Assembly (NCBI GenBank): GCA_963922205.1
Contig: CAWUHX010000035.1
Span: 1,426,001-1,490,000, forward strand
Origin: Romanomermis culicivorax
Lineage: Eukaryota; Nematoda; Enoplea; Mermithida; Mermithidae
DNA: 64,000 nt
Direction: 5' to 3'
The notes under the pieces are model-generated. The model was not told the origin of the DNA. It ran no database searches and worked only from the letters and a program-made list of their open reading frames with translations. The position numbers were made by a program, and so were the translations under genes. Shown here one piece after another: positions 2,152 to 53,758 of this stretch (within the stretch, counting starts at the first letter, position 1; the number at the start of each line of letters is the position of its first letter).

Positions 2152-2173
2152 TAGATTTTTCTCACTGGTCTTA

Positions 2174-3791
2174 GGCCCAAATTACAGAACGCGAGTAAAA
2201 TAAAGGTAAGGTAAAAGTAAAATCTCGGGTAATGTAACCCATGTTTAAGCCGCCTTTTACCTACTATTTTACCCGTGATTCTAACCACCTTTAACTCGAA
2301 GTTTTACTTGCGATTTTACCCATGAATTTACCCCTCTTTTACCAACGATTTTACTCATGTTTAACTCGGAAATTTACCCGACTTTTTCAGTTTTCGTATT
2401 ACAGAACGTAGGTAAGTGGCGGGTTACCCAACCCATCATTTTTATACATGTTTTTCATGGTGAGCTTGTTCTTAGTTATATTATGAGCAGAATATCCCAA
2501 AAGTAAAATGCCCATATCTCACAATGAAACATTTCTTACGGTTCAAAGCAATAGCTCTCATGACTATGCGCTACTTCTCCCATTATGTGAGCCATCCGCT
2601 CATGCTCCTGTAACTGTAGCTATCCTGAAATAATAATTATGCTTTACAGTATTGTGTGCAGGAATAAAATTCATGCAAGGGAATTTTCTGACAGGATTGC
2701 TGTGAGCGTAAAGGGTGTTGGTTTGCTTAATAATCACTATTTAGAATTCGCCATGCCCCAGAGTGATGAACTCATTGTGTTTTTTTATTGCAACTTCTAA
2801 TACTATAAGAAAAGCCATTTTATATTTTTCAGATTTCCTGCTTAGCAATATGTCATTTAAGAGTGAAAATTTGTAAAACTACAAGAATTTTTGAGTAAAA
2901 AATTCTTCAGCAAAGACTTAGTGCAAAAAATTTCAAAGACAGTGTTAATTTTTCGATTCCCAAGCATTCTAATAAAAACGTACGATAGTGCATTTCAGTT
3001 GTTATAGCATAGATTGTAATTGTTTATTAACTCAAAAACCGTAGGAGTCATTGTTTTTTGAGCCTGAGGAGAATTTTATGGAAGATTATTCAAGCTTCAA
3101 AGGTTTTCATCAAAAGCCACAATTTTCATCAGATTCACATATCAAAATGTTGATGTAAAAAACCTGTTGATTCATCTCAACGGAGTTTGAAAAGCAAAAG
3201 ATGTGTTTCAAAATTGTTGCACTATCGAATAATAGTGTAGCTCGAAAAAGTCCTCTTCCGACAATAACCCACTGGTATCACAATTTTATGCTGATACTGT
3301 TGTACCGAAATATGTGCAATGATTATCAATCTATTTCCGGAAAATCTGAATTTTCGGGCTCCTGGCCATTGCCATCACTAACATCAGATTCAGTTTAACC
3401 TGCAACACATCGACCGCATGCAAAGAACCAACCAAATCCGAATATAAACTTCTTGTCAATGTAACCCTGCTGCTAGCAGGAATCGCAGGTTATTTTCATA
3501 TCTTTTTCACCAACTTTTCTCTCAACTTTTACCTTACCAGCCTTCTGTAATCTCGGTATGGATAAAATCATGGGTTATTTTTTTCTACCGACGATTATAC
3601 CCGTCTTTAATCCATGATCGTACCTGCGATTGTACCCGATTTTTACCCAGCCTTAACCTACGATTCTACCCGAGATTTTACTCAACTTTTATTTACCTAC
3701 GATTTTACTCGACATTTCTTTACCTACGATTTAACCCGTCATTTTACTCTTACTCTTACCCACGTTTAACCCACTTTCTGTAATTTGGGCC
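2174..3791. mobile_element. Harbinger-like non-autonomous element with TTTTACCC-motif arrays (1.6 kb)
   Basis: Terminal inverted repeats GGCCCAAATTACAGAA / TTCTGTAATTTGGGCC, flanked by the 3-bp duplication TTA (2171-2173 and 3792-3794). TTA/TAA duplications are characteristic of PIF/Harbinger. Each end continues into about 200-300 bases of many short units related to CTACGATTTTACCCG, oppositely oriented at the two ends. The middle (about 2450-3400) is A/T-rich with no recognised protein. Confidence 0.8.
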
Positions 3792-5124
3792 TTAAGGGTC
3801 ATTTATAAGGCTTGTCCCCAAAGCGAGACTCAAAACAGCGTTTCTCAAAACAGCGAAATCTCAAAACAGTGATTCTCATTACAGCGAAGTCTCAATACAG
3901 TGATTCTCATTACAGCGAAGTCTCAATACAGCGATTCTCAATACAGTAAATACTAAAAATTTCTATGCATCAGAGTAAACACGCACAATATGCAAATTAG
4001 GTAAATTAAAATCGTTTTTCATGGTTTTGATAGTCTATTTTTAGATGCATTTGACCATTTAAAGTTCACATGCTTTTATGCTGCAGTTGGGGTAGGTATA
4101 CACGAACGGACTATTCCAAAATCACAAAAAATATGTCAAAAAACATTTTTGCAAAACTTTTGAAAAAAACAAAACTAAAAAATTATCGTACGGATTCTCT
4201 ATTAAATTTGTTTTGTAGGCAGCTTAATTGCATCACAAAAAAACTAAATTGATGAAATAATAAAATAAGATGAAATAAACAAATAAGATGAAATGAATAA
4301 AATAATTAAGCAGTAAAGGCAAAAAAACCGAATGATGAAGACATGAGAAGAAAAATAATCTAGTAAAAAGTAAGTAAAATATAGAACAAAAGTACAGAAC
4401 CTGAAAAAATTATAGAAAAGTAGCACAAAATAAAAATATTCAAAGAAAAAAATCGAAAAAAAGAAACAAGAAACATGCATGTGGATATGCAAATAATAAA
4501 CAAGCCAGAATAAAAAGCCGTAGTGTCGTGAAAACACATGCTATAAAGCCATGTCAGAAATCTGGGGATTGGTGCAAAAATGTGTGACAACCCGCATTCA
4601 CCAGATCGAAAAGTAGGACCAAATGGGCCATGTGCCAAAACGTCTACCCCCCGCCCAATTTCAATTTTTCCATTCTGAAGATAACTGTTTTGAAAATTCT
4701 TTATTTTGAGAATCTGTTCTGATATTTCGCTGTTTTGAGAATCGCTGTATTGAGACTTCGCTGAATTGAGAATCGCTGTTTTGAGACTTTGCTGTTTTGA
4801 GAATCACTGTATTGTGACTTCGCTGAATTGAGATTCGCTGTTTTGAGACTTCACTGTTTTGAGAAACACTGTATTGAGTTTTGCTGTTTTGAGATGTCAC
4901 GTGCTGATCAATTTTGCCCAACGTCACCTGATTTACAACATGTCGATACTTTATATTTTTCGTCACTTATTGTTTAACAGTTACTTACTCTTATTTTTTG
5001 TTTCGTTCATTATGTGTTACATGAATTTTTGTGTTTCATTTTTGTGTTTGCTTTTCCGTTTCGTTTTGGTTATTCCATTCCGCACGTAGACTACAGTACA
5101 GTCCAGATCACAATAAGTAACGTG

Positions 5125-5345
5125 TGTTTTTGCTTGTGGGTTACTTGTCACAAGCGTCAATTTGGCAAGCGCTTGGCAAGCAATCCACAAGCGAAGCACT
5201 TGTGGATTGCTTGTGGGTTGCTTGTCCAAGCGCTTGTGAGTCGCTTGTCCGAGTGCTTGTAGGTTGCTTGCCAAGTGTGACCTGCTTGCCAAGCGCTTGT
5301 GAATCGCTTGCCAAGTGCTTGTGAGTCGCTTGCCAAGCACTTGCA
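5125..5345. repeat. Left subterminal array of CTTGTGG/CTTGCCAAG motifs
   Basis: About 20 close-packed copies of a roughly 10-base motif (GCTTGTGGGTT, GCTTGCCAAGCG, CACAAGCG) in both orientations. The right end has the matching array at 10175-10395. By analogy with other DNA transposons these could be transposase-binding sites (inference). Confidence 0.85.
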
Positions 5346-6027
5346 GCTATAAAAGTGAATGTCAGTTGGAACATATTTATGAAGGCAATTATTTATTGGA
5401 AGTCTGTCGGGTACTTTGAGGAGGTCCATAACACGCGGCTTTTCAAAAGCAACAGCAGACGTTTTTTGTTTTCAACTTTTTTGAAAGAGAAAAATGTATC
5501 ATACCTTTTTCAAAATATGTATGCTGCTTGCTGTTTATGCATAAAAACGGAATAAAGTAAACTTTCTTAAAATTTTTTAAATAACTAATTACAGTGAGAA
5601 CCGCTAAAATAAATTGGACTAAAAATTTGTGAGTATGCCCAACTAGCCTGTAACTGTAAAAAACTCTACCAGACAAGCTCTGCCAAAAATTGTCATTTTT
5701 CCTGTTGTCATTTTTCATTTCCGATTTATAAGCATTTTATAAATGCTTTTTTTATAAATGCTGTTGTCATTTTTCCGATTTATAAGCATTTTATAAAAGC
5801 CTTACTGTAGCAGACCGATTGTTTTTCATATCATCAAATGGAGATGAGCTGTTAGGTAATAGAAATGCATGAGAGTAACATGTTCATTGCTGTATCAGGC
5901 CATACATGGATCGTTTGATAAATTTTCGATCATCATCTCATTCTCATTCTGTACAAAAGCGATTTACTCTATTACATTGTGTCAAAAATTCAGCAATATG
6001 TATAGTTTATTACAAAATTACAAAATA
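5346..6027. other. Non-coding left part of the Tc1/mariner element
   Basis: No recognised gene. At 5705-5800 a direct repeat built on TTTATAAGCATTTTATAAA occurs twice. On the minus strand the AATAAA of the BEN gene lies at 6011-6006. Confidence 0.5.
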
Positions 6028-6473
6028 CTAATTTTTACATTTTGTGTATTGTTTACGTAATTTTGTATCAATCAAGTTGCGGATTCTTGTCCATTCAGTG
6101 GTGGCATCTTTGATTGTAGCATCGATTGGAAACTTTAAAAATGTCAATTTGATTATCCAATGGACTCTATGCTTGTCCAACTGACGGAAACCATTGACTC
6201 CAGTAATAGTCGCACCATTGAGTTCTTCGTTTGTAAAAATTGTAAAAACAAGTTGAGTGGCAAAGTTTGCATGACTCTTGCTGACTTGGTACAGTAATTC
6301 GATTTCCGTGTTGGGTAAATGTGCTCCATAGGCAATTTTTTGGACACAAAATAATAGTGGATCTACTTTGCCTGAATTGTTCATGGAATTTTCCACCAAT
6401 GATCCAGAAGAAGCGTTTATTTCGTCTGGCTGGCTATTTAAAAGCACTTCTTCCTTTTGGGCAGCATCAGTTT
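6028..6473 (-). CDS. Last exon of the BEN gene: BEN domain
   Basis: Entered in phase 1 from GTAAGA at 7003-6998 to TTCCAG at 6479-6474. The frame starts ETDAAQKEEV and ends TKCKN-stop. The conserved BEN features run from about 6300 to 6055: a helix ending in a leucine/phenylalanine-rich stretch with FTNEEL, a G-containing loop (TGVNG), QLDKHRV, then KFP and a C-terminal W-T-R-I helix. Confidence 0.8.
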
Positions 6474-7941
6474 CTGGAAGAAAAGTCATATGAAAACTTT
6501 CACAAACTATAGCCAAATCAATTTAAAATGTTAGATGCTGAAAAACCGAAAAATACGCCCAATTTAATACACATTTTCACTTTGTAGAGAACTTTATACT
6601 GTAGAAATATGCTGAATATCTTCATGAGGTTGACTAGGTCAAATCAATGAAAAAACATCATGCTTGTTCAAATCGTATTTCACATAAGATGGAAAATCAA
6701 TGAGCCTATTCAATTAACACTTACCATTTTTTAGACATTTTACTTCATCTTTTCAAATGAAAAGTTCGTTTCATCTTTGAAAATGGCAGGTTAGTTAGCA
6801 TAACTTGAGACAAAACCAATAATTTTCGTGATTTTTCATGGATTTTTTGTGTTTATAAAGTTATTTTTACGGTAAGCACACATTATAGTTACCAAATATT
6901 GATGATTGCTTAATTTTTAAACACATGAAGTAAAAATTGACAACAAAAAGTTGTGGCTTACTATAGATGAGTATACTCGTGGTATACTGTAATAACATCT
7001 TACCTTTATTAGTCGTATTTCTGGGGATCAATTTCCGCTGTTGAATATTGGCGGCTCTCGAATTTTCGATTCTCTCCAAAATGGAAATTGCCACTGACAA
7101 AAAATTGGTCGCCATAGACGAAATTTTCAACAAGGTCGCATTCATCATTTTTAATTCTCATAAAATTTGGCTATTAATGGATGATCCGTTGTTATCTGCG
7201 GTTGAAAAATGAAACTATGAATGAAATGAATGCTTCCAAATCGAAAAATGACAAAAATCAGTACTACTGTCATCAAAATCGTTCACACAAAGCTTTTACA
7301 GTAAGATTTTCTTCTCAAAAAATGGCTAATGGTTAGTTGAGTTACTGCCACTAGTATTACCTGTACTAATTATTTCCACAGCTACTGTAGCTGGAGATGT
7401 TGGTGTTGATCGATGAGTAGGATGAGCGAAATCCACATCGATTTGCTCAAACTCGTTTACTGCTGTCGGACTGTTCATTTTAAAAATATTTGATGCCTCG
7501 ATGGCATTCCTGAGTGCTGCTGCTAACTCTTCCTTATGTTTCTGCTGTTGTTCCGAATTGGCGATCCTCGATTCTGGCGCCTTGCATACAGTCAAGGTGG
7601 ACGAGTCCACAAATGAATTCAAAATCGGTTTTTTACGTTTTGTAATTGGATCCAAATTTTTTGGTTTTTGAGCTTGTTGCTCTTTGTCATTGCAAGTAAT
7701 TGTCCGAAAAATATGAATCCTCACCATTGTTTTTTGTCTCCAGCAAATTCGCTTTACTGTTGCTCAAAGCCCATATGATGCTCGAAACATCACCTTTCCC
7801 AGGCCAACTTACTGTAATTTTTCCATTTTCAACGATCTTTCCGGCAATCTTTTTCGTTTCAACAATCTCATAGCCATCTTCAAAATCGACTAGGGCAAAC
7901 GTTTTGCATTTTTTCAATCACTTTGATCGCTCACTTGTCAT
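6028..7941 (-). pseudogene. BEN-domain protein gene of the Tc1/mariner element (spliced, one in-frame stop)
   Basis: Minus-strand gene, proposed exons 7941-7725, 7681-7361, 7156-7004 and 6473-6028, giving about 378 codons; phases agree at all junctions. Exon 1 begins MTSERSK, then TGA at codon 8 (a Trp codon is plausible ancestrally), then LKKCKTFALVDFEDGYEIVE, a small N-terminal domain like those heading other BEN-domain proteins. The middle is Ser/Thr/Lys-rich, with a short helical part. The last exon, after a clean acceptor TTTTCTTCCAG, encodes the BEN domain, with FATQLVFTIFTNEELNGATI, then QLDK, KFPID and a closing W..IRNLIDTKLR. BEN domains bind DNA or partner proteins in chromatin. AATAAA lies 17 bases past the stop. 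The 43-base first intron (GTGAGG...AAAG) is unconvincing; a frameshift is the alternative. Confidence 0.75.
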
Positions 7942-8662
7942 TATTAAATTAGTTTAAAAAAGTATAAACATACAGAATCTAAATAAAAACAGACATGGGA
8001 ACAAAACATACGTCGATTCACAGTAAAAAACGTCAAATGTTTACTGTAGGTATCAATTTAAGGACTTTATAGGTAAAAAGTTAAGATATTTAATGTTGTG
8101 TGGATTACAGTAATCCGAATATGGAGCCAAGATTCCAAGTAAATGAGCACAACATCCATCTTCCATAGCCACAAATCGTAAGTCTTATTATGCTCAACTA
8201 AAGCTATGGTATCCAGGTCGTATGTTTTGTTTTCACAGAAGGAGATTAATTAAATGATGGTCATAAATTAGAATGGCGGCCCACAAAGTCTATTTTGGGT
8301 GGTCCAATTGTTATTGAAAATATGAGGAAAATTCAAGTCAAAAATAACATCGTATTGATTGTGATACATTTCTTTGTTGTCTGGGGAGACTGCACTTTAT
8401 TTTTCTTGTAGTTTCCATGTTTTTCGAGCAGACAATACAGCTCAAAAATATCGATTGTTTTTAACCTTGATTTTTCCCTCCACTCTATGATTTTTTCACA
8501 TTTTTGCAACATGTTCCATTTTTCATAAGAATTTATTCTTTTTATTCTTGCATAATTGATCTTTTTTAGTTATTCATCATCAATTCGAAAAAAATTGCAG
8601 TTTTACGTTCCTGGGCTGTGGTGATGTGATTTTTCATTTGTTTTTTCTGATCATATAGAAGC
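7942..8662. promoter_or_regulatory. Divergent intergenic region between BEN gene and transposase
   Basis: About 720 A/T-rich bases separate the two head-to-head start codons, so any promoters for both genes should lie here. I see no clear TATA box or operator to single out. Confidence 0.4.
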
Positions 8663-9711
8663 ATGGAAAATAAACGCAAGTTTAAACATTATAATTCATA
8701 TCTACGTGGGCGCATAATTTGTTTGCACCAGGCACAGTTGGATGCATCAGCAATTGTTTTGGCATTAAAACATGAACGTATTTTGGTGCATCGACAGGGG
8801 TCTCAAATTTGATCCAGCGATATATCCTTCATCGTAATCTAGACGATGCGCCAAAGAAAGGTCGCCCTAATTCTGTTAAACTCGAAATTAAAAAATTTAT
8901 CGAATCACAATTGCAAAATAACAATGAACTGACTGGATCTCAGCTTACGAGCGTGATTTATCAACATTTTACTGTACATATTTCCTCGTCTACTGTTAAC
9001 CGAATTCAAAAGGAACTAGGATGGCGACCAGCACATCCAAAATATTGCCAAATCGTGCGAGATACAAACAAAGTGAAACGGTTAAATTTCTGCGCTTTTC
9101 TAATTAAAGACATTGGAATTCTTCAGAAAATTATTTTCGCTGATGAAAGTTGCATTCAGTTGGAACGTCACAAGAGAATTATATGGAAAAAAAGTAATGA
9201 TAAGTACATTTTGCTGAGATCGCGAGCAAAGCACCCAGTCAAAGTACATATCTGGGCAGGTATAAGTTGGTCCAGTGCTACTGACGTCGTCATGATGCCA
9301 GAATCGACACGGATAAACAGTAAAGTTTACCAAGAAATCTTAAGAAAATCGTTCATTCCATTTGTTCGACAAAATTTTCCAATGGACGATTATATTTTTC
9401 AAGCAGATAGTGCACCATCTCATAAGAGCGAGGATACAATGATGTTTATTAAAAACAATAATTTGAACTATGGCCCATTGTTTTGGCCGCCAGAATCGCC
9501 AGACTTGAATGCTATCGAAAATTTGTGGCACGAATTGAAGGACTTTCTTCATGGCTCTGTGAAGCCTAGTAATTTAGAAGAACTAAAAGCAGGAATTTGC
9601 ACTTTTTGGAAAACGCGTGTTAGTGTAGAAAAATGTCAAAAGTATATTGCTCATGTAGTGAGGATTATTCCTCAAGTTATAGAAAATAAGGGTGGTCCTA
9701 CATTGGGATAA
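8663..9711 (+). pseudogene. Tc1/mariner transposase, DD36E type, one frameshift
   Basis: Cut-and-paste transposase. ATG at 8663 opens MENKRKFKHYNSYLRGRIIC, a helix-turn-helix start, but this frame stops at 8810. From 8778 the body continues in another frame: TYFGASTGVSNLIQRY (second HTH), KKGRP linker, then the catalytic core. The triad is D in FADES, D in QADSAPSHKS, and E in SPDLNAIENLW. I count 36 residues between the second D and E, hence DD36E. After NLW come WHELKDF and a short helical tail ending at TAA. AATAAA follows at 9723-9728. Around 8770-8780 one base has been gained or lost, so this copy should be inactive. Total length of about 349 residues is normal for the family. Confidence 0.88.
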
Positions 9712-9722
9712 CAACTTTTTTG

Positions 9723-9728
9723 AATAAA
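9723..9728 (+). promoter_or_regulatory. AATAAA polyadenylation signal of the transposase gene
   Basis: AATAAA lies 11 bases past the transposase stop codon; its counterpart for the BEN gene is at 6011-6006 on the minus strand. Confidence 0.6.
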
Positions 9729-10174
9729 ACTTCATGTTTTTGTGGCGATGATAAGTACAGACTCCTCGAAGTGGTTTAATCTCACCCTAATGGGTTCAAA
9801 AACAATTTAAAATTCAGTATCAGCAGAAATAGAAATATGGATGGTGCTTGATTAAGAATAAGTGGCATCGCCGCAGACTTTCTTACTTTCTTAGCCTTCG
9901 ATGTAATGGCTTTATTTTAGTTAAGAAAAAATTGTTTAGATCTTTGCAGTGGCATCTTCAAAATTAGTGAACTATTAGCTTTTCCAGATGAAACTTTATT
10001 AGTGGGCAAAAAAGTTATTTATTGTAATCCATAGATCATCAACGTCACAACAAATAAAACATATTTCACGTCTACACTGATCCATTTCGATATAATCTCT
10101 TCTGAGGAATTCTTTTGTCGGCAAAGACAAAGGCGTCCCTAAATGTGAAGAACAAGGTCGTAAAAAAGTGTCTT

Positions 10175-10395
10175 TTGTGCATCGCTTGTGGACTGCTTGT
10201 GAAAGGCTTGTGGATTGCTTGTGGAACGCTTGTGGAGTGCTTGTAGAACGCTTGTGAAATGCTTGTGGATCGCTTGCACAAGCGCTTGTGGGTTGCTTGG
10301 CAAGTGCTTGTGAGTTGCTTGTGGCAAGCAATAAAATGACAAGCAATCCACAAGCACTTGGCAAGCATGTCACTTGCCAAGCGCTTGTGGACATG
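10175..10395. repeat. Right subterminal array of CTTGTGG motifs
   Basis: Dense copies of GCTTGTGGA/GCTTGTGAA and, nearest the end, CTTGGCAAGC and CTTGCCAAGCG. It is the mirror image of the left array at 5125-5345. Confidence 0.85.
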
Positions 10396-11666
10396 CCACG
10401 TTACTTGTGATCTGGACTGTATGTAACCCGTTAGTTAGAATTTCCGCCAGATAAGCTCTACGAGCTCATGGCCATACTTGGAGCATTACGTGCACCTCTT
10501 GTCAGTAAAAACTAGCGACGTTTTGCAACCCAAAACGACTAGTTTGGAAATTCTCACTAAAAGATGTTCATATGTTAAGCATGGAGAGTGAAACTCGCCC
10601 CAATGCTTAAGGTATTCGAACTGGAAAATGTCTATGTGACCATAGGCATCTTCTGCACCGATTTCTGCTCTACAGAAGTTAGCTTGGGCGTTATTAGCTC
10701 CGCCCAGGGCATACCATAGGTCTACAAGGTCCTTAAAAGGGCCTTTTTCATTAATTTTGTACTCATTTTTGGGCCTACCAAGTTTCCTTTGGGTTTTTAG
10801 CTCTGCATCTGCATCTGTCAAACTTTATATATATATTTTTATATTGTATTGCGTTGGCCGCCTACAGTTACCAATAAATTTGCATATGTTTATTGTGCCC
10901 ACTGCATCCGCTGCTGGACTCTCACCTAGGAATATACCCGTCGCCCCTTGCATCTAGTTTTCTCCCGCTGCTCTACATGTGGATCGTTTGTGTCACCCCT
11001 TGACCTATTCATCGCCCTCAGTGCTGAACGTAACCGGATCCCCATCACCCTCCGTTCTTGCTGTCCAGGACCCATAAACCCCTGAACCCATGGATCAACA
11101 GGGACCCGTCGTCCTACACGGAATCGTATTTGAGAAAAGGACCAGGTAAGTCTTCAAAGGGGATTATTGCTGTTGAGGGTGCATTGTAGGGAACCCTTTC
11201 CTAAGTCAGTTTTCCCTTGAGAGTCCCCTTAGTTAGAGTACCTCTTGTACCTCCTGGGTTAGGACGAAAAAGGAGATTTAGGTTTACAATCAGGTCCCCT
11301 ACATTAGGCCATTCCACAAATGGCCTTGTCCTTCATTCTCAGTGAATGGGACCAGGGATTGCCACCCCTGACCTGGTGGCATTGTCCATTACTCTACAGC
11401 AGAACCCAAGGACAGCACATAGTACCCTATAGGCCCCCCTATAGCCAGTACTAGCTGGGTCAGGTTCCCGAAAGGAATATAAACGAGCCACCCAATGGGG
11501 TCACAGTGTGTTCCTCACAGTGACATGGCGGTATTTTCATCAATATGGCATGGGTTTCTTCCCATCAATGTGATTGGCCACAATTTTACTTAATGTGACA
11601 TGGCTCCAATTTCGTTTAATGTGGCAGAGAATCGCTGTTGTGTGTTTCGCTGAATAGGGGTGAAAC

Positions 11667-36000: not shown

Positions 36001-39000
36001 TCCGAAATCAGTCAGCAGCCTACTATAATTTCATGAATTTCTTTTTTATTTCAATTGATTTAATGTAAAACAGGGTGCTTTCAATCGTAACTAAACAGCT
36101 TGTAAAACAGGAGGCATCCAAGCGGCAAGCTGATAATGTGTAGCATTGAATTTGCAGTTTCGCTTTTGCTTAATTTTGGTAATTAAGGAAAAAAATTTCG
36201 TGTCTTTTCATCTGTGATATTTTGTTCGGTATATATTGGACTTGAAATAATGAACTTTTACTAGCGTTCCGGTAAGCATCTCTGCTTCTCCGATTACTAT
36301 AGTTTCCTCGTTCATTGTCATCACTGCTCACTGATTTCAAATTTACTGACACTTAATAAAATTACGATAGATAAAAACTCCTCCAAGCCCCTAAAGTGTA
36401 GCGAGTCGCCTTCAAATCTGAACAGGATACATTTGACTGGAGCAGCTGCTGAAATGAAGAAAAAAATTATGCGGCTTCCCAAGGGAAGTCGCCCCAAGGA
36501 TCTCCTACACTTCAAAATTCTGAAACATAAGTGTAAAATGCGTGACACGAGAAGCTTAATTATTCTAAATTACAGAGTATTACCTTCTGCAGATATTGAA
36601 GATTTGACCATTGGCTTGTCTCCTCCCTACGCTGAAATGTCTTGGATGTCATTAACACACCGAAAAACGTTGAAAAGTTTAAAATTGCAGTTTCGAGTAT
36701 TGTAGCTATGTGAATTTTTCATGCAATAGTATCGTCGTATTATTCAACGTATGAAACTGATTAATATATCTCATTTTCAGGCATGTTTAATTTTTAATTT
36801 ATTTTTTTATTTAATTTTCAATTATAGATCAGCGCAGGGTCGCACTTTTCATAGAGCGTGTCTTAAATGATGATTCCAGCGCTATTTTATGAAGTGCCCA
36901 TACTGAGATAGAGGTCAATCATTTCTTCGCTTTTCCAACTATACTCCATCTATTTTGAAAAGATAGATAGTCGAAGATATAGCAAGTGCAGTCCTACTGA
37001 AGATCATAAAATTAATTGTTGTAGTCTTAGAATTTTTGGAAAGAAATAATTGTCGGGAAATCTGCTTCATTAAGAAGAAATTTATTTGATTTCGCTGCTA
37101 CGTTCAAGTTTTTTAGCTTAGAATAATAATTATTCGGTGCAGAATTTTGAGAAGAATGTGGTGCAAAAACCACATCGGTAGAACTGAAGTTACCGAGGAA
37201 AATTCAGAGTACTCGGTCTCTGCGAAATGTCCTCTATATCCGGAAAGATTCACTACGATGTGACATTTTAAGCTTGATTTATAAGGTCAACCAATTTTTC
37301 TTATATATCACAATGCTAGAAAAGTATTGCTAATTCAGTTGTCCAACAACGTGGTGGCTGCAAATTTAGAGCTTGAGCTGAGCTCGATCTCAGCAATATC
37401 ATAAGTTTATCCTTCTACGCACTATGGCATATGAAAAATTTTATGCTCAAACTCACTTGGAACTTGAGAATAGCTCTAGGATATTCGTTGGCCACTTTGA
37501 CCATACTCGTACCTGCTTTTCTATGTGTGAATTTTTCTATTCCAATTTTTTCAGTTTCTTTTATAATTGTTTAGGAATTTTAAATTGGTACATTCCCTGC
37601 TGTTAATGTCCCATATCCTGTTATGTACACAATATTTATCTCAAAAACTAATTCAATATCAGGGTTTAAATGAAACTATCCGCGGATTACTACAAATTGG
37701 CCATTATTATTCTTTCAAAGTTTGCGCCGTCACATCGTCGTCGTACGATATAAATTGGGACTTAGCACTTTCGCACTCTATCGATCTTACGACTTACGAA
37801 ACGTCGTCTTCGGCTGTTACGGCAGACGACAGCATGGTAACCCTGCCTCCTCCCCGCTCTGCTAACGTATCCTTGACTCGAAAACACACTCTAACGATTG
37901 TTGGTATAACGGCTATCGCTTTATTAACATTTTTGATGATTATTGCTTTGATCGTCTTCTTCTGTTATAAACGCACGACAATATGCCGTCGAGGCAGAAA
38001 TTCGTCTTCCGTCGGCGAATCGAAAATTTCCAATGGGAATGGTAGAAATAGCAAAACGTCGATCGTCGATGACGATCTGTGGGAAATTGATCGTACAAAG
38101 CTGATTATAAACGAAGATCAAAAATTAGGCGCTGGTGCCTTTGGATCAGTTTACAGAGGTAATCTTACATGCACGTGGAGGTTTGGGGTGTATTGACCCA
38201 TAGCGAATTTTGATTGACCCTCAGCCAGTGTTTTTTTTCTGCCGGAGGCAAATGAAAATTTTTGGGGGAAAACGAAATTGAGGTAGTCATTTGTACATGT
38301 ACAAACGGCTCTTTCCCCATTTGGGGAAGAAAATTTTGGGGATAATGTACAGAAAACATGCATTTTGGGAGTTCATAACCTCAAAATTTTACAGCGTTTC
38401 GCGCCGGATATAATTTTAATAATCATTAATATGTATTACCTAGCTTAGACGCGGCTTTCAGAATGTCTACCTTCACCCATTCATGTAATTTACATTAGTT
38501 TTCATCATCTCAAACGTATTATCTCATGTTTTAAGTAGTAATCTTCAATATTTGATCTTGATATTTAATGAAGATTCATAGTTTTTCCTTGAAACATTTT
38601 TTGAAAAACCTTAAGTCTCTAAACTTTTTGAAGCAATTATTCCTTTCTTAACGTAAGATCAATTCGGAAGCTTCGTGGAAGTAGTTTTCAGAAATTTCTA
38701 CTCTTCCACTCATATCTTTTCGGCTTAGTTCGTGAGAGTTAACGAATAAATTACTGGTTTTAAAATTTTTCAAATAATAAAATTCTAAAAATTACGACTT
38801 TTGAACACAAAATTCGAATCTAATTCTTGAAATAAATGTTTGGAAAATTGATTTTCCAGCGTCGCCGAATGTCTATACACAAAAAAATTTTCCGGCGCTT
38901 CGCACCGGAAACATTTACATATTTTTTGCACTTTCACTTGTCATCATAAAAGACTTAACCATCGATTTATCTTCTAATGCAAATTCATTATGCTATTGGA

Positions 39001-42000
39001 TAGTTTTCTAGAAAATTTGTTCCACAATGCTAGTAAATTCGACTTGAAACTCGAAAATTTCAATTTTTTGCTGAATTATAGTGAAATTTTTTCGTAGTTA
39101 TAAATAAAATTTGAAAATTGCACTGATTTGGTTATTAGTCTTTGGCCATGATGTAGAGGAACACAAGTTACTTATTTATATCTATTCTTGCTATGTACAA
39201 ATTGTACAAATAAAATATTGGCCGCCGTTTGTACATGCGCAAGTGGGTCATGTACAAAAAAACCCTGCCCCCAGCAGATTCTTGCTTACCCCCCAGTAGA
39301 TTTGACCCCCCAGCAATGATTGAGAAGTCGAAACAGGAAAGTGAGCAAGAAAGAAGAGAAAGTCGTCATAAAAATGAAAATGATGCTGTAGCTTAACAGT
39401 TTTTCAAGGCAAGGCATGATTCCAAAGAAGTAACATTAAAACTTTAAAAAGTGCTATCCAGGCAAATAAGTTCCGCTGCTTGGATGTTAGAACATGTTTA
39501 TTCTTGTTATCAACGACGAAAAAAAAATTCATTCTCACCCCCTGTCCTGGCTGACCCACAGCAGAATTTCTATGCTGTGCATGTGTGGAGGTTATGACTA
39601 CGTCAAGACATACGTAAATTGGGGGAAATGTCATTGGAATCCACCTGAAGTTTACGGCCACTTGGCTAGCCACATGATGATTGAAATGGTGAATCTACAG
39701 TTTTTTCAATTATATAGCTCAAGTGGGCCAGCCATAGGAACCCAATCCTTTTGAATGAAAAATTTAAAAAATCCAATTTTCGCTAGATAATTTTATTTTT
39801 TAACAAAAAACGTTCAAAAATGTCAATTTCTTTTACACTTCGCACTATAAACACATTTGTGTATTATTTGGGCAGAAATTACTGTTTTTGTAACCGTTTT
39901 CAGTCTTTTTGCGCGAAAATCGATTTTTTCCTTCAATGAACCTTCAGCTGAAGACAAAACATGTAAACAGGGTGTCCAGTAACCTGGAAAACCTGGGAAA
40001 GTCAGCAAAAATTCTATGTCTGGAAAATCTGGAAATGTCAGAAGTTTTGATTAGGATTGTTATGATGTAGTCGTTTTTTAAAACATAAGCTCGAATTATT
40101 AAGATTAGCCACATTTGCTTTTTGAAAGTTCAAAATCTCTAAATTTTCCGGTGTTTCGCGTCGGATTTTGGCTAAAGTGCCGTTTTTAGAAAGTTTAGTA
40201 CTATTATTCAATTAACATTTGATTGTTTTAGTGCATCTGTAATATTCTATTTCGTCTGTAACGATTAATATTTAATTTTTTTGAAGGATAATAGAATTCA
40301 AACTTTTCTGCTGATATTTTTATGTTTGCCAGATTGATTATTGTTGTAACGTTATCATTGATGAACATCAAGAAACAATTTAAAAGCATACTATCAAAAT
40401 CACAAGGTCCAGATACTGAGAGCCAGTTATGCAGTGATTTATTATTCTGATGGAATGATTTATTGTTCTGATCGAAGAACAGCTAAGGCATAATACTCTT
40501 ATGAGACATGTTTGTGTAACATTTATTTATTTGTACATGTCGAAATTAGGACGAATTTCAGAAAATTTCGTTGTCTTTGGTTTTGAAAATTGTCCATGTG
40601 AGTAACAGTGCACTTAAAAAGTGCGTTCAATAATAATAGTAATAATAATAATAATAACAATAATAATAATAATAATAATTGCAATAGCATTACAAAAGAG
40701 AAAACAAAGAACATTAGTAAAAGACATGAAGCCAATAGTGAGCGGTTTACAAATGAATCAGAAACTTTAAATATCATACCAGAATTTCATAGTTTTCATA
40801 GTGGTGCATGGTTAAAGAGGCGAATGAGTTTATATTTTTCCAAATTCAAATTTTTCTGACAGAGCATCAAATACCCCAGTACTACTGCCGAAAACTATAT
40901 GCTGAGAGTATTGGTTCCAAATGTTGACTGTTCTAATCACAAGAATTTATCGGTGCCACTTTTAGGGCCCTGTCATAGTCCGCGGTGCCGCGCGACGCCG
41001 CTTTTTCTATTCATACTATGTATAAAGCGGCACCACGCGGTAAGAAACCGTAGGAGTAAGAAATTGTGAATACATAAGTTTCATATGAAAAAATAATGTG
41101 ACCAAAACCAATCCCTGCCGATGGAATACTTCAGCCACAATTCTCGGATATGTATTAGGACACCCTGTTACACGTCTCCCTTTTTCGAGAATGTCTTGAG
41201 ATATGATGATCGTTAATGGTCGAAACTTGTTCAGGAATGAGAAGCAAAGAATTCTCTACAGGTACTGAGAATTTTAGACATCAAGTGCAATTAGTAGCTT
41301 CAAAAACGGTAAAAAATAAGAGTATAAGCAAATTTTTCCAGAGAGCAAAATCCAAAAGTCAAAAAGCGGCAGCGTTTTGCCGCTTTTTGTATGAATAAGT
41401 TTTGTGTATGCATAGAGGTGCATCTTTATTAGTATTAATAGAAAATACTGTGAGCACTTTGCGCTGAAGTATGACAGGACCTTCAGTTTCAAGTTGTTCC
41501 GTGATCTGATGTCAACGGTACTTGATGGCACGGAAGTCTTCCAACTTCAAATCAGTTTTTTGATAAGATATTTTATATAACGTGACAATATCGTTTAGGA
41601 TTCTCCTTTTTCAAAGGTGTCTAGCTACAGAATAGTGAGTCTTTCAAAATGACACCCTTTGAGAAATATTTTTGTACTTTTTCAAAAGTTTTAATATTAG
41701 CAAGTGAGTGAAATGACCATACAGTTTTAGTGTATCCAAGTAAGAGTCTCACATAAAGTTTGCATGCTTTGGTTCAGTAGGAGAAGTATAGAATAAACAT
41801 TTTTTACTATTTTACTGATATTTCATAAAATTTTCCATTTTCCGATAACATTACTCTCCAATCTTTGATTCTATTGTCCGTTTTGAGCAGAAGTCCATTA
41901 ATTCTGTATCCATATTTCAGATTATTACTGCCGAAATGCACTTGATGACAGACTCAGTTGGAATTCTGCAGACTATTAGCCACTAGTTGTAGATATTATC

Positions 42001-45000
42001 AGCAAAGATAAACATTTCAATATATGAGAAATGTAATTTATTAGTAGAAATAAAATAGGTCCTAAAACCCTTCTTGAGGAACTTATGAGTACATCACTCA
42101 AAATGCTAATGTCAATATAATAAGTATTCGTTACTGTAACTTGCACAAAAAGAGAATACTAGCTTTTTTGAACAGGAACGTGTTTTAAGTTAACCTTTCT
42201 TATTTGGGAATAAAATTAAGGTGATTTACACAATTGTGAAAAAAAGGTCGTGTAGAAAAAAACCATTTTCGGCACAAAAAGTTGAAAAATTATTTAAAGA
42301 AAAATAGACAGCTACTGAGACGAAAAAAATGTGACAGCTCAACTTAAATTGTCGAAGGATTAGCACTGTAATACTAAAGAAAATTTATTTTTAGGAAAAA
42401 ATAGTTGAGCTTACAGATCGCAGGATCAAAAGAATGTGAAAACATTTTAAAGTCAATTTATTAGAATTTTTTATCATGTCTGATTTATAGTGTTATACTT
42501 ATTTACAGCATCTGGTCAATACTGGGCAATGACAAGTTCTTGATGCTTCAAGGATCTAAATTTTTGGCTGGTTGCCTGATTTTTGAATTTTACTTGCCTT
42601 ATTCAGTCCAAAACTGATCTTATTTCTGTTGTTTTGGCCTAATTTATTGAAAATGGTTGATTTATCGCTGATATTTTTGGTTTTAGTTTGTTGGCGGCAC
42701 TATCTAGCTGATTGAAAACATCAACACATTGTCGAGTTTCTAAATTTGATGTAGGAATTATTGATTTTTGTGCCAAAAAACCTGGAAAATTCTATAAAAA
42801 TGACCTTCAAAACCTGGAAAAGTCAGGGAATTTGATTTTGGAAAGCCGCTGGACACTTATCATAAAGAGTTCGCGTTATTCGCTCAGATCACCAGAGATG
42901 TATCGGGGACCGGGACTCGAATTTACCCGACCATTTTGTTGGACCCTGACCCGATATTCTTAAAATTTTGGACCCGAACCCGATATTTTCAAAATTTTGA
43001 ACCTGTTGTAGTGGTGCATCCGGTTGTTCATTACGCGGCATGCCCTGCACTCACCGCCACCACTGCAACCATAATTTCCGAACCATTCGCGTGGCTCGGT
43101 TAGCGCAGTTGGACAGCGCGTCTGCCTTGAATGCAGAAAGTCGAGGGTTCGAGCCCCTCACCGAGCGTTATTTTTCTGACGCACCAGCCACGTGGATTTC
43201 GGCATACGACAAACCCGATACATCTCTAGTTTTTATTGTGTGAAGATATACATAAAAGTAAAAGTATGTCACACAGATTAGCGTTTTGAAAAATATAATG
43301 GACCCGGACCCGGAATTACCCGACTATTTTGCCGGATCCGGACCCAATATTCTTGGAATTTTAGACTCGGGCTCGAACTTGATATTTTCGAAATTTTGGA
43401 TCCAATACATCTCTACAGATTATGGAGCTGCGTTACATGTGTGCAGATAGGGGTAATCTAAAACCCCTTCAAACTCATTTTTAGGTATCAGGTCTATGCC
43501 TTGCATGCTTGGATGCACCGGAGCTCCTAAGTCTGGGGCATCAAACGACTTTTTGCTGGCGAAGAACCGCCGATTGCCAAAAATTTTGGTCGTTTTTCGC
43601 CTAAAAAGGCGAAAAATGGTCCAAAAATAGTAATTTCTGTTCAAAATCTGTAATAAATGAATGGCGCGAAGCGCCGAGTGACATTTTTTACCCTTTTTGT
43701 TCAAAAATAATATTTTTCCCAAAAAAATTGACATTTCTTAGTTTTTTCCCGACCAAAAGTATGTATGTCTTTATAGCTAGCTATAGGATTGACAAATCTT
43801 AAGGTGGGTCAACCTATCACTACCCATATGACCGACGATTTCTGAGGGGGTTATTATGGCACTCGCCCAAATTATGTGTATGGTGTGTGGTTTATGCGCA
43901 TATTTTCTTTTTTTCTGCTCATTTAAACACTTTTGAAATACAAGTTAAAGAAAGGTTATCTTTTTCGACTGAATGACGAAGTTATTTCGGTCCTTCTGAA
44001 AATGATTTTTGTAAAATCAATTTGATGCCTAACAGAAATACGAAAAACATTTGTGTGTATTAAATTTAAGGTTATTCGAAAAAATTGAATCAATTTCCAT
44101 TCTCAGATAATTTTTTCTAGCGTAGTTTTTTCATCAAAAATTCACGGTTGAAGTCGTTAGTTTCTTCATTTTTCATACAGAAAACATGCTTGTAAACCGA
44201 CAAGCGGCAAAAATTAGCACAGTCATCAAAATCGCTTACACGAAAACTTTGTCTGTTGTTAAAATCAGATTTTCTTTAAAAAATCAAAAATTTTCAATTC
44301 TATTTGAGGTGAAAAATTTTTATTTTCAGGTCTTTTGATCTCCTCTCGGAAAACGAATTGCGTTTATCCGAAGAACGAAAACCAAGACGGCGATAACAAT
44401 GGCAATTTCGATGCGACAAATGAAGTTGCGGTAAAAATGCTTCCAGGTAGTGTGAAGTATGCTATAAAATCGCGAATCTTATTTTTTTAAGAAAATCTAA
44501 GTTTTTATAGAATATGCTGACGATTTCTCCAAGTCAGAATTCCGGAAAGAAATTAATTTGATGAAAAATTTGGGTCACAATGAACGATTGGTTAACATGC
44601 TCGGTTGCGTAACCAAACTAGAGCCGCTTTGTTTGATTGTAGAATATTGTTCAGAGGGTGATTTACTACATTACCTCCGCGAAAAGCGTTCCTACATGAT
44701 TCAAGTAAAAGTTGCTTGGTTACGAAAATTAAGGCTGGTCAGTTTTTGCAGGACTTTTTAGAAAAGTGTAGTTTTTTCGGAAAATTTCATTTTTTTGACA
44801 TTCATATGACTCAATCATTTTTTAATTTTTTAGCTTGAAAGTTCAGGCGTCGATCTCTGTGATCCGAATCTAAATTGGAGTTCAATCGAGATAGACATGG
44901 TTTTGTGTCTTAGAGATTTGATATCTTTTGCATGGCAAGTCAGTATAGGCTTGGTGAGCTCTACGTGTATAAACCAATCCTTGAATTGTTGCATTGAAAC

Positions 45001-50535: not shown

Positions 50536-51580
50536 TGTCACGTGCCGACGAATTTCGTCCAGCGTCACGTGATCCACATCATATTTTTTCCGTTATGTTT
50601 TTCGCCACGTTTTGTTTTTACAGTAACTTACATTAATTTTACGTTTCGTTTTTATAACTTTTACATGCAATTTCTGGGTGTATTTTTTATGTTTTGTTTC
50701 TGTTTCATTCTCGAATTTTATTTCCATTTCGATTTATTATTTTCTGTTGCACACGTAGACTACGGTATGTAACCCGCTAGTCAGAATTTCTGTTAAAGAT
50801 AAGCTCTCCGAGCTCATCGCTGTAATTGGAGCACAACATGCACCTCTTATCAGTAAAAACTAGCGACGTTTCGCAACGTGAAACGCCTATAGTCTGTTTT
50901 TCTTAATATGCTTCTAAATAATGAAAGTGGAAAGCAAGTAGTATTTCAGATTTTTGCTATTTTCTGATGAACAAAATAACATGTAGGACTGGAAATTTGT
51001 GAGCATACTGACCCGAGCTTTAGCAATTTTTAGAGTAAAAAATCTTACAAAAAGAACTTTATGTAAACGATTTTGACGACAGTACTGATTCGTGTCACTT
51101 TTCTATTTGGAAGCATTTTATAAAAAACAGACTATAGTTGGAAATTCTCACTAGATGACGTTCCTATGCTAAGCATGGAGAGTGAAAACTCGCCCCAATG
51201 CTTAATGTAGTGAACTGGAAAATGTCTGTGTGATCATAGGCATCTTCTGCAGCGATTTCTGTTGCAGAAGTTAGCTTGGGGGAGTGTTAACTCTGCCCAA
51301 GGCATACTGTAGATTATGGGGCTCTTTAAAAGGGCTTGTTTCGTTGATTTGTCACTCATTTTTGGGCCTAATCATCTTGTTGCGTTTTACAGCCTGCGTT
51401 TCGCGTTTGCCTGCGTCATCTTATTATAATTTACATATTGTACCTGCATCCGCCACCTGTTCAATAAATTTGCATATTCGTCTTCGGCCTCCCTTGCGTT
51501 GCCAGTTACGGTAACCAACCGTAGGAGTCTACCCACCCCCGTCGCAGCTGATCAAGAACCCCCGTCGCCTCACTGAGGAA
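50536..51580 (+). mobile_element. LTR-type element, second copy, interrupted by a TAGTCTG MITE
   Basis: Begins TGTCACGTGCCGACG as the copy at 4895 does (TGTCACGTGCTGATC). It follows that copy through GTAGACTACGGTATGTAACC, the block AAACTAGCGACGTTTCGCAA, TTTGGGCCTAAT and AATAAATTTGCATAT. A TA-MITE of 245 bases sits at 50890-51134. The two copies part after about 51580. The right end and target duplication could not be fixed. Confidence 0.65.
50890..51134 (+). mobile_element. TAGTCTG-family MITE, copy 3, with an empty site at 10532
   Basis: TAGTCTGTTTTTC...AAAACAGACTA with TA on both sides. The homologous LTR copy reads ACGACTAGTTTGGAAATTC around 10530 with no insertion, giving the pre-insertion site: one TA there against two here. 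Confidence 0.88.
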
Positions 51581-52882: not shown

Positions 52883-53049
52883 TAAATATCATGGTAAAAT
52901 ATTGAAGATTACCAATTAAAACATGACATAATACTTTTAAGATGATGAAAAGTATCATAACTTAAGTGATAAAGTGAAGGTATGTTGAGAGTGGCCAAAG
53001 CAGCCACCTCAACTGCGAATTGTTGCAAAAAGAGAGCGCCTTTCCCGCT

Positions 53050-53123
53050 GCTCGGTTGGCTCAGTTGGTTAGAGTGTGCGGACGGTAGCCGCAAGGTCCT
53101 GGGTTCAAGTCCCAGACCGAGCC
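53050..53123 (+). tRNA. tRNA-like unit 1 (anticodon GGT, C33)
   Basis: Acceptor GCTCGGT/ACCGAGC, D stem GCTC/GAGT, anticodon stem TGCGG/CCGCA with loop ACGGTAG, variable AGGTC, T stem CTGGG/CCCAG with loop TTCAAGT. A box TGGCTCAGTTGG and B box GGTTCAAGTCC are intact; TTTT follows at 53128. By position the anticodon is GGT (Thr), but base 33 is C where nearly all tRNAs have U. It may be a tRNA-derived repeat. Confidence 0.65.
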
Positions 53124-53278
53124 TAACTTTTACTGAAGCCCTGAGTGGCGGGAAAAGGTTGCCTCAACACTGGTGGCCCTTGACGGTCCATCAAACTCGA
53201 CGGCGGAGGGATGTTGAGAGTGGCCAAAGCAGCCACCTCAACTACGAATTGTTGCAAAAAGAGAGCGCCTTTCCCGCT

Positions 53279-53352
53279 GCTCAGTTGGCTCAGTTGGTTA
53301 GAGCGTGCGGACGGTAGCCGCAAGGTCCTGGGTTCAAGTCCCAGACCGAGCC
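53279..53352 (+). tRNA. tRNA-like unit 2 (acceptor mismatch)
   Basis: Same fold as unit 1. The acceptor 5' strand is GCTCAGT, giving one A-C mismatch; the D stem is restored to GCTC/GAGC. Confidence 0.6.
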
Positions 53353-53507
53353 TAACTTTTACTGAAGCCCCGAGTGGCGGGAAAAGGTTGCCTCAACACT
53401 GGTGGCCCTTGACGGTCCGTCAAACTCGACGGCGGAGGGATGTTGAGAGTGGCCAAAGCAGCCACCTCAACTACGAATTGTTGCAAAAAGAGAGCGCCTT
53501 TCCCGCT

Positions 53508-53581
53508 GCTCGGTTGGCTCAGTTGGTTAGAGCATGCGGACGGTAGCCGCAAGGTCCTGGGTTCAAGTCCCAGACTGAGCC
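53508..53581 (+). tRNA. tRNA-like unit 3
   Basis: Same fold. The 3' acceptor strand is ACTGAGC, giving a G-T pair; the D stem is GCTC/GAGC. Confidence 0.6.
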
Positions 53582-53758
53582 TAACTTTTACTGAAGCTCC
53601 GAGTGGCGGGAAGAGGTTGCCTCAACAGGTAGACATGCTAAAAGCCCGCCTGAACTAGATAAGACATAATAATGATTATTAAAGTTAAAATTGGCGCGAA
53701 GCGCCGAAAAACTTTGAGATTATGACGTTCTAAAATGCATCTAAATACATCTTTTCTG

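What the first reader, a model, noticed from the sequence alone, without database searches (positions are those of the whole stretch)
5099..10419. A 5.3-kb Tc1/mariner element with two genes: DD36E transposase plus a divergent BEN-domain gene
Seen: 15-base inverted ends, TA duplication, a transposase with 36 residues between the second D and E, and head-to-head with it a multi-exon minus-strand frame ending in a BEN domain, both genes with AATAAA within 20 bases of the stop. Known: Tc1/mariner elements are usually 1-2.5 kb with one gene; BEN domains act in chromatin and DNA binding and occur in some viral proteins. Inference: the BEN protein is cargo that helps target or regulate the element, or shields it from silencing. 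I know of no described Tc1/mariner element with a BEN partner.
Basis: partly seen in the sequence, partly recalled or inferred. Interest (0 to 1): 0.9.

Follow-up and report, generated by a model that had tools for sequence, protein, structure and literature searches.

The report
Two-gene Tc1/mariner transposon with BEN partner
In a mosquito-killing roundworm, a jumping gene of a very common, normally one-gene kind carries a second gene for a probable DNA-binding protein, and the pair recurs together in many copies, which suggests that the second protein works for the element.

Summary
Confirmed, and not an accident of one copy. The window lies in an assembly whose size and contig number match Romanomermis culicivorax v2. 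The 5,321-bp element (5099-10419) has TA flanks, 15-bp exact ends, 11-bp-phased arrays inside both ends, a DD36E transposase and, head-to-head, a gene ending in a BEN domain. Full-length copies with both genes recur in the genome: C342, C189 and a decayed C339 of this family; C31, C10, C203, C207 of a second DD36E family. Of 33 BEN places, 20 have a related transposase within 12 kb, all 20 head-to-head; chance predicts about 1%. Two of the 20 stand beside more distant transposases. Both genes show constraint in most pairs. About 30 short copies keep only ends and arrays. The window copy is broken in both genes; an open copy (C342) exists. Best reading: BEN is an element-encoded DNA-binding helper or regulator, probably acting on the arrays (inferred). 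Ciliate Tc1/mariner elements with extra genes are known; none with BEN turned up in my paper searches.

The parts
5097..5098 (.). TA target-site duplication, left
   Evidence: sequence; TA also at both ends of C342 and C189 and of 7 of 7 short copies read
5099..5124 (+). left terminal inverted repeat (15 bp exact, 23 bp with a 3-base gap)
   Evidence: 23 bp without gap at both ends of C342 and C189
5130..5345 (.). left subterminal array of GCTTG/CAAGC half-sites, mostly 11 bp apart, with CAAGNNCTTG palindromes
6006..6011 (-). AATAAA polyadenylation signal of the BEN gene
6028..6473 (-). BEN gene exon 3 (BEN domain, stop at 6028-6030)
   Evidence: Pfam PF10523; start of exon agrees with P0121 and with C342
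7004..7195 (-). BEN gene exon 2; in-frame stop at 7158-7160 in this copy
   Evidence: acceptor and stop read by eye
7361..7941 (-). BEN gene exon 1 (conserved N-terminal domain, ATG at 7941); stop at 7918-7920 and frame change near 7700 in this copy
8663..9711 (+). DD36E transposase gene (frame change near 8800 in this copy; open frame 8776-9711)
   Evidence: open 349-aa counterpart in C342
9142..9519 (+). catalytic D (9142-9144), D (9406-9408), E (9517-9519)
   Evidence: positions
9723..9728 (+). AATAAA polyadenylation signal of the transposase gene
10176..10392 (.). right subterminal array, same motif
10397..10419 (-). right terminal inverted repeat
10420..10421 (.). TA target-site duplication, right
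   Evidence: sequence

Best explanation
A group of two-gene Tc1/mariner DNA transposons in R. culicivorax. Gene 1 is a DD36E transposase that cuts and pastes at TA (inferred from its family). Gene 2, transcribed the other way from the shared middle, makes a protein with a conserved N-terminal domain and a C-terminal BEN domain. Shown by sequence: the pair, its order, the ends and the arrays recur in many copies and in two DD36E families. Inferred: the BEN protein binds the 11-bp-phased palindromic arrays inside both ends and so helps to pair the ends, or controls expression and chromatin of the element, much as TnpA of En/Spm or the Myb-like protein of Harbinger do for theirs (both recalled). 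I put about 0.95 on the two-gene family and about 0.4 on array binding.
For: Copies with both genes and matching ends: C342, C189, decayed C339; second family with TIR CAGTCCGACGCACAAACAACG and TA: C31, C10, C203, C207. 19 of 29 BEN places have a transposase within 12 kb, 19 of 19 head-to-head; chance about 0.9% (transposase places typed); C222 adds one. C489: BEN Pfam E 5.3e-10 beside a 46-47%-identical transposase. The N-terminal domain also stands beside decayed transposases at C491 and C5:1970k. BEN confirmed in family 2 (E 2.6e-6) and by a PDB profile search, 8 of 8 hits BEN domains. dN/dS of the BEN exon 0.29-0.81 in 10 of 10 family 1 pairs; transposase C35-C342 0.32; between families silent sites saturated, dN 0.32-0.37 (transposase) and 0.61-0.72 (BEN). 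Arrays at both ends of both families, 11-bp units GCTTGTGGATT and GTTTGTGGATT; 9 of 10 CAAGNNCTTG of the window lie in the two arrays; half-site columns slightly better kept in 10 copies (p 0.014, 0.005).
Against: No expression, binding or transposition data. The transposase itself could bind the arrays. Some copies lack BEN (C104 with an open transposase; none found in the stretches read at C5:1457k, C74, C249), so BEN may be dispensable or supplied by other copies. One close pair exceeds 1 in dN/dS for both genes (C31-C203: 1.35, 1.44). The half-site test took motif positions from one copy and used related copies, so it is weak. Five BEN places (C207:340k, C4:545k, C4:559k, C4:755k, C9:2454k) have no listed transposase nearby. 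The genome-wide Pfam search listed 8 places over the cut-off, of which only C31 belongs to the two families; the window's copy was not listed.
Confidence: 0.72

Rival explanations
1. Same two-gene element, but the BEN protein acts on host chromatin: it keeps the element from being silenced, or steers insertion, and the arrays are bound by the transposase.
For: BEN proteins act as repressors and boundary or insulator factors (starts of abstracts). R. culicivorax has DNA methylation machinery, and the related Trichinella spiralis methylates transposons (passages). CpG is depleted in the arrays (observed/expected 0.62 and 0.47 against 0.96 for the window), as methylation would cause.
Against: No direct data; arrays are kept in gene-less copies, which fits a role of the arrays in mobility, whoever binds them; the CpG figures rest on about 430 bases of one repeated motif.
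Confidence: 0.3
2. The BEN gene is a passenger captured once and carried along, with no function for the element.
For: Copies that lost BEN exist (C104); the window copy's BEN gene is broken.
Against: Same gene order in two DD36E families about 60% identical in transposase, and beside 46-47% (C489) and 40-42% (C222) transposases; an unneeded gene would hardly stay readable that long. BEN dN/dS below 1 in 10 of 10 family 1 and 9 of 10 family 2 pairs.
Confidence: 0.08
3. The BEN gene is a host gene and the transposase copies landed beside it.
For: Five BEN loci have no listed transposase nearby, so the worm may have BEN genes of its own.
Against: BEN lies between matching ends with TA flanks at C35, C342, C189, C31, C10, C203; C10, C203 and C207 each align to C31 as one continuous stretch of about 4.7 kb from end to end.
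Confidence: 0.02

Closest known systems
Incomer (DD36E/IC) Tc1/mariner family (PMC6875036; passages)
   Same: DD36E motif, TA duplication, short TIRs, Tc1-type transposase of about 346 aa
   Different: Incomer is about 1.2 kb with a single ORF, mainly in vertebrates, with some insects and arachnids; ours is 4.7-5.9 kb with a second gene and subterminal arrays. Whether the two DD36E groups share descent was not tested
TBE elements of Oxytricha (PMC4724952; passages)
   Same: Tc1/mariner transposons with two extra genes of unknown function (22 kD; [quoted passage not shown]
   Different: ciliates; no BEN mentioned in the passages; telomere-bearing ends
Sardine, Thon and Anchois of Paramecium, Tec of Euplotes (PMC3464196; passages)
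   Same: Tc1/mariner elements of several kb with accessory genes (tyrosine recombinase or hypothetical ORFs)
   Different: ciliates; no BEN mentioned in the passages
En/Spm (TnpA/TnpD) and PIF/Harbinger (recalled, not looked up)
   Same: two-protein systems in which one protein is the nuclease and the other binds DNA, for TnpA in subterminal repeat arrays
   Different: other transposase superfamilies, other DNA-binding domains
Sleeping Beauty (PDB 5cr4, E 2.3e-15)
   Same: catalytic domain
   Different: DD34E and one gene (recalled)
BEN domains of BEND3 and BANP (PDB; PMC10206803 passages)
   Same: BEN domain; BANP BEN binds a palindromic TCTCGCGAGA context
   Different: host transcription factors, not mobile
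Bracovirus Ben genes found in Lepidoptera (PMC4574769; passages)
   Same: BEN domain at the end of the third of three exons; carried by a mobile agent
   Different: polydnavirus circles, no transposase partner in the passages; N-terminal domain PHA02737, not compared with ours

Membership tests
Tc1/mariner superfamily | DDE_3 catalytic domain with a DDE/D triad of short spacing | tested here: met
   PF13358 E 1.3e-17; DD36E; family 2 also 36
Tc1/mariner superfamily | TA target-site duplication and terminal inverted repeats | tested here: met
Tc1/mariner superfamily | helix-turn-helix DNA-binding region before the catalytic domain | tested here: met
   HTH_33 E 1.7e-6, 27.9 bits, cut-off 25
Tc1/mariner superfamily | usually a single gene, about 1-2.5 kb (usual, not defining) | tested here: not met
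   two genes, 4.7-5.9 kb
Incomer (DD36E/IC) | DD36E spacing | tested here: met
Incomer (DD36E/IC) | about 1.2 kb with a single ORF | tested here: not met
Incomer (DD36E/IC) | groups with Incomer transposases in a tree | not tested
   no Incomer sequence was at hand; in a tree of the window and 41 of the 120 listed homologs it groups with P0001-P0005, the only DD36E rows, support 100/98
BEN domain proteins | match to PF10523 above its cut-off | tested here: met
   window exon 24.3 bits, family 2 28.0, C489 39.8, cut-off 23.2. Just under it: the C342 exon 21.8 and the mis-spliced window protein 22.5
BEN domain proteins | BEN fold | tested here: inconclusive
   AlphaFold model mean pLDDT 44, not searched; a profile search of PDB sequences gave 8 of 8 BEN chains, best E 0.0011

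The most novel reading that the evidence does not exclude
An old animal lineage of Tc1/mariner transposons (the DD36E families and more distant cousins at C489 and C222) is a two-protein system: a BEN-domain protein with its own N-terminal domain recognises 11-bp-phased palindromic arrays at both ends, and array sequence and BEN protein have changed together between families. The BEN sequences of this nematode may all trace to such elements, which would explain BEN in a phylum said to lack it.
Probability: 0.35. Interest if true: 0.85.

Novelty: new variant of a known kind. Interest (0 to 1): 0.76.

Why it matters
Tc1/mariner transposases are thought to need little but themselves (recalled), which is why they are used as tools in many hosts. 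A lineage that keeps a second, probably DNA-binding protein would show how such an element gains regulation or end recognition through a partner, and offers a testable link between BEN chromatin factors and transposons. A paper passage (PMC10206803) says that BEN is missing in nematodes; here is a nematode assembly with 33 BEN places found, 20 of them next to such transposases.

Tried and rejected
Led nowhere: viral-contig scans with the transposase and with alignment A2 and a genome-contig scan found no relatives; plasmids none. The protein search with a spliced BEN query found nothing at E <= 1, but that query left out 43 bases as an intron, later shown to be coding, so it is a weak negative. 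AlphaFold models of the BEN exon (pLDDT 44) and the N-terminal domain (56) were too poor to search.

Rejected: a 43-bp intron in BEN exon 1 (C342 and P0121 read through it; the median intron of this worm is 405 bp, passage); an acceptor at 7157 for exon 2 (C342 is open from the CAG at 7196). My first stitching of loci assumed reversed orientation and was wrong; redone after with 0 conflicts. The identity table put two gene borders one base off.

Not finished: genome-wide counts of the terminal repeats and a search with the more distant (C249) transposase did not complete. The transposase list scored 127 of 305 candidates and the DNA list scored 40 of 2,510, so both are lower bounds; the five unpaired BEN genes may have partners that were not listed.
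Full report
What is in the window. Positions 5099-10419 hold a 5,321-bp element. The 15-bp ends are exact inverted copies, extend to 23 bp if one 3-base gap is allowed, and are flanked by TA. No TA-flanked exact inverted pair of 15 bp, 0.8-8 kb apart, arose in 40 first-order simulated windows. Inside each end lies an array of about 216 bp with 20 GCTTG/CAAGC half-sites, mostly 11 bp apart; 9 of the 10 CAAGNNCTTG palindromes of the window are there. The plus-strand gene is a Tc1-type transposase: DDE_3 E 1.3e-17, HTH_33 E 1.7e-6, 36 residues between the second D and E, best solved relative Sleeping Beauty, E 2.3e-15. Among the 120 listed homologs aligned, 5 (P0001-P0005) are also DD36E, 109 are DD34E, 6 are other. 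The minus-strand gene ends in a BEN domain, PF10523 E 3.6e-5.

This copy is decayed. Homologs match the transposase in two frames that change near 8800. Compared with the open copy C342, the BEN gene has stops at 7918-7920 and 7158-7160 and a 2-base frame change near 7700.

Host. The assembly behind the window has 359,112,060 bases in 595 contigs, the size and scaffold number published for R. culicivorax v2 (359.1 Mb, 595; PMC10879605, passages). A UniRef protein of R. culicivorax, P0121, is 80% identical over 93 residues to the BEN exon, and its first residues match the C3 copy. GC 36.7% fits the published 36% (PMC3890508, passages).

Other copies, same family. A DNA search with the whole element (40 of 2,510 candidates scored) found C342:178083-183945 and C189:122573-128444 with both genes and 23-bp gap-free ends with TA at both sides, C339:225909-231273 (76-83%, TA at one end only), C3 in pieces with about 3.3 kb of other DNA between, and partial C5:1138k, C365 and C23. 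C342 has an open transposase of 349 aa and an open BEN gene (start of exon 2 read by eye). C189 has about 0.55 kb inserted within the transposase. By my count one search lists 31 further places with roughly positions 1-651, 30 of them also with 4960-5321 or part of it. I read the 7 that were cut out: 7 of 7 are 1,074-1,144 bp with TA and the TIR, sometimes with a few mismatches, at both ends. They have lost both genes but keep both arrays.

A second family. Transposases about 60% identical lie in elements bounded by CAGTCCGACGCACAAACAACG and TA. C10, C203 and C207 align to C31 end to end as one piece of about 4.7 kb at 97.7, 97.5 and 92.7%. They carry the same head-to-head pair: a DD36E transposase and a BEN gene whose BEN exon scores 28.0 bits, E 2.6e-6. 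C31 is open in the three parts read (transposase, first exon, BEN exon); C10 has one stop in the first exon; C203 has one stop in the BEN exon and a changed start; C207 and the other copies in the table are broken, C104 apart in its transposase and C63 in its BEN exon. Some copies lost one gene: C104 keeps an open transposase but only scraps of BEN; C63 and C1:3190k keep the BEN exon but no transposase. The arrays exist here too, with unit GTTTGTGGATT in place of GCTTGTGGATT, also 11 bp.

How general the pairing is. I merged the BEN-exon matches into 29 places. 19 have a transposase within 12 kb, 19 of 19 head-to-head; with 128 transposase matches in 359 Mb chance would give 0.9% (positions typed from the three lists). 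The Pfam BEN search adds C222, C9:2454k, C4:559k and C4:755k, so 33 places; C222 has transposase matches 4.0-4.7 kb away, head-to-head, making 20 of 33. Of the 13 unpaired, 8 are fragments or deletion derivatives of the two families by DNA match and 5 (C207:340k, C4:545k, C4:559k, C4:755k, C9:2454k) are unexplained; one search scored 127 of 305 candidates, so a partner could have been missed. C489 is notable: its transposase is 46-47% identical and its BEN domain scores E 5.3e-10. The N-terminal domain also stands head-to-head beside decayed transposases at C491 and C5:1970k. Against generality: no convincing BEN match (best E 0.4) in the stretches read at C74:361000-367000, C249:29000-35600 and C5:1456324-1462900, and no Pfam BEN on C74 or C249; the C74 transposase has 35 residues by my own count of the letters. 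Of the 8 places only C31 belongs to the two families; the window's own weaker domain was not listed. The 14 control genomes of that call had none; they were not named to me.

Selection. Nei-Gojobori dN/dS of the BEN exon among 5 family 1 copies is 0.29-0.81 (10 pairs); transposase C35-C342 0.32. Within family 2, 20 of 21 transposase pairs are 0.20-0.74 and 9 of 10 BEN pairs 0.17-0.83; C31-C203 is 1.35 and 1.44 on very few changes. Between families silent sites are saturated (dS above 2 or not computable) while dN is 0.32-0.37 (transposase) and 0.61-0.72 (BEN). This fits both proteins having been kept since the families split. Many copies are pseudogenes, which raises the ratios.

Is it really BEN? 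Beyond Pfam, a profile of five BEN exons from two families (A3) against PDB sequences gave 8 hits at E <= 10, all BEN domains: BEND3 (best E 0.0011) and BANP. The single window exon alone had given BEND3 at E 0.43 and one unrelated ribosomal protein. The AlphaFold model was too poor to use.

Mechanism. Shown: pairing, order, ends, arrays. Inferred: the BEN protein binds the arrays. In favour: BEN domains bind DNA, BANP in a palindromic context (PMC10206803, passages); arrays are palindromic and helically phased; half-site columns are a little better kept than the rest in 10 copies (0.980 against 0.960, p 0.014; 0.983 against 0.946, p 0.005; motif positions taken from one copy, related copies, so weak); array motif and BEN protein both differ between families. 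Not excluded: the transposase binds the arrays and BEN acts on chromatin. CpG is depleted in the arrays (0.62, 0.47; window 0.96), T. spiralis methylates transposons and R. culicivorax has the machinery (PMC4323106, passages), so silencing and escape are a fair rival.

What is known. Tc1/mariner elements with extra genes are known in ciliates: TBE (PMC4724952, passages), Sardine, Thon, Anchois, Tec (PMC3464196, passages). DD36E Incomer elements are 1.2 kb with one ORF (PMC6875036, passages). Searches of the held library for BEN domain with transposon and mariner (3 papers), with transposable element and nematode, with transposase and with Repbase listed no paper that, by title and start of abstract, describes such an element; of these I looked into one (PMC4574769, passages). 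Most subscription papers are not in the library and Repbase itself was not searched. A passage in PMC10206803 says BEN is missing in nematodes.

Verdict. Real, multi-copy, and a new variant of a known kind: Tc1/mariner with a recurrent BEN partner gene. The mechanism is open.

Noticed in passing
window 3822-3946 and 4704-4894: Two arrays of a 31-bp unit (CTGTTTTGAGAATCGCTGTATTGAGACTTCG-like and its complement) in opposite orientation about 0.8 kb apart, looking like the subterminal arrays of another small element, directly left of the studied one.
   Followed up: no
window 2171-3793: Stretch bounded by inverted GGCCCAAATTACAGAA-like ends, perhaps another non-autonomous element (seen by eye).
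   Followed up: no
window 7229-7329 and 6522-6627: Stretches in the BEN introns resemble short repeats elsewhere in the window (51020-51117, 1954-2027, 44186-44250; 270-378), 73-81% identical.
   Followed up: no
G000 C207:340002, C4:545322, C4:559257, C4:755230, C9:2454504: Five BEN domains without a listed transposase of this kind nearby, in a nematode: host genes or partners of more distant elements.
   Followed up: partly
window 52978-53627: Three tRNA genes in a 229-bp tandem repeat, 97% matches.
   Followed up: no
window 37567-47482: Open frames that may be exons of a receptor tyrosine kinase (Pfam matches below the cut-offs).
   Followed up: no
L071 (C74:361000-367000): A 682-residue proline-rich open frame beside a DD35E-type transposase that is split in the DNA.
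   Followed up: no
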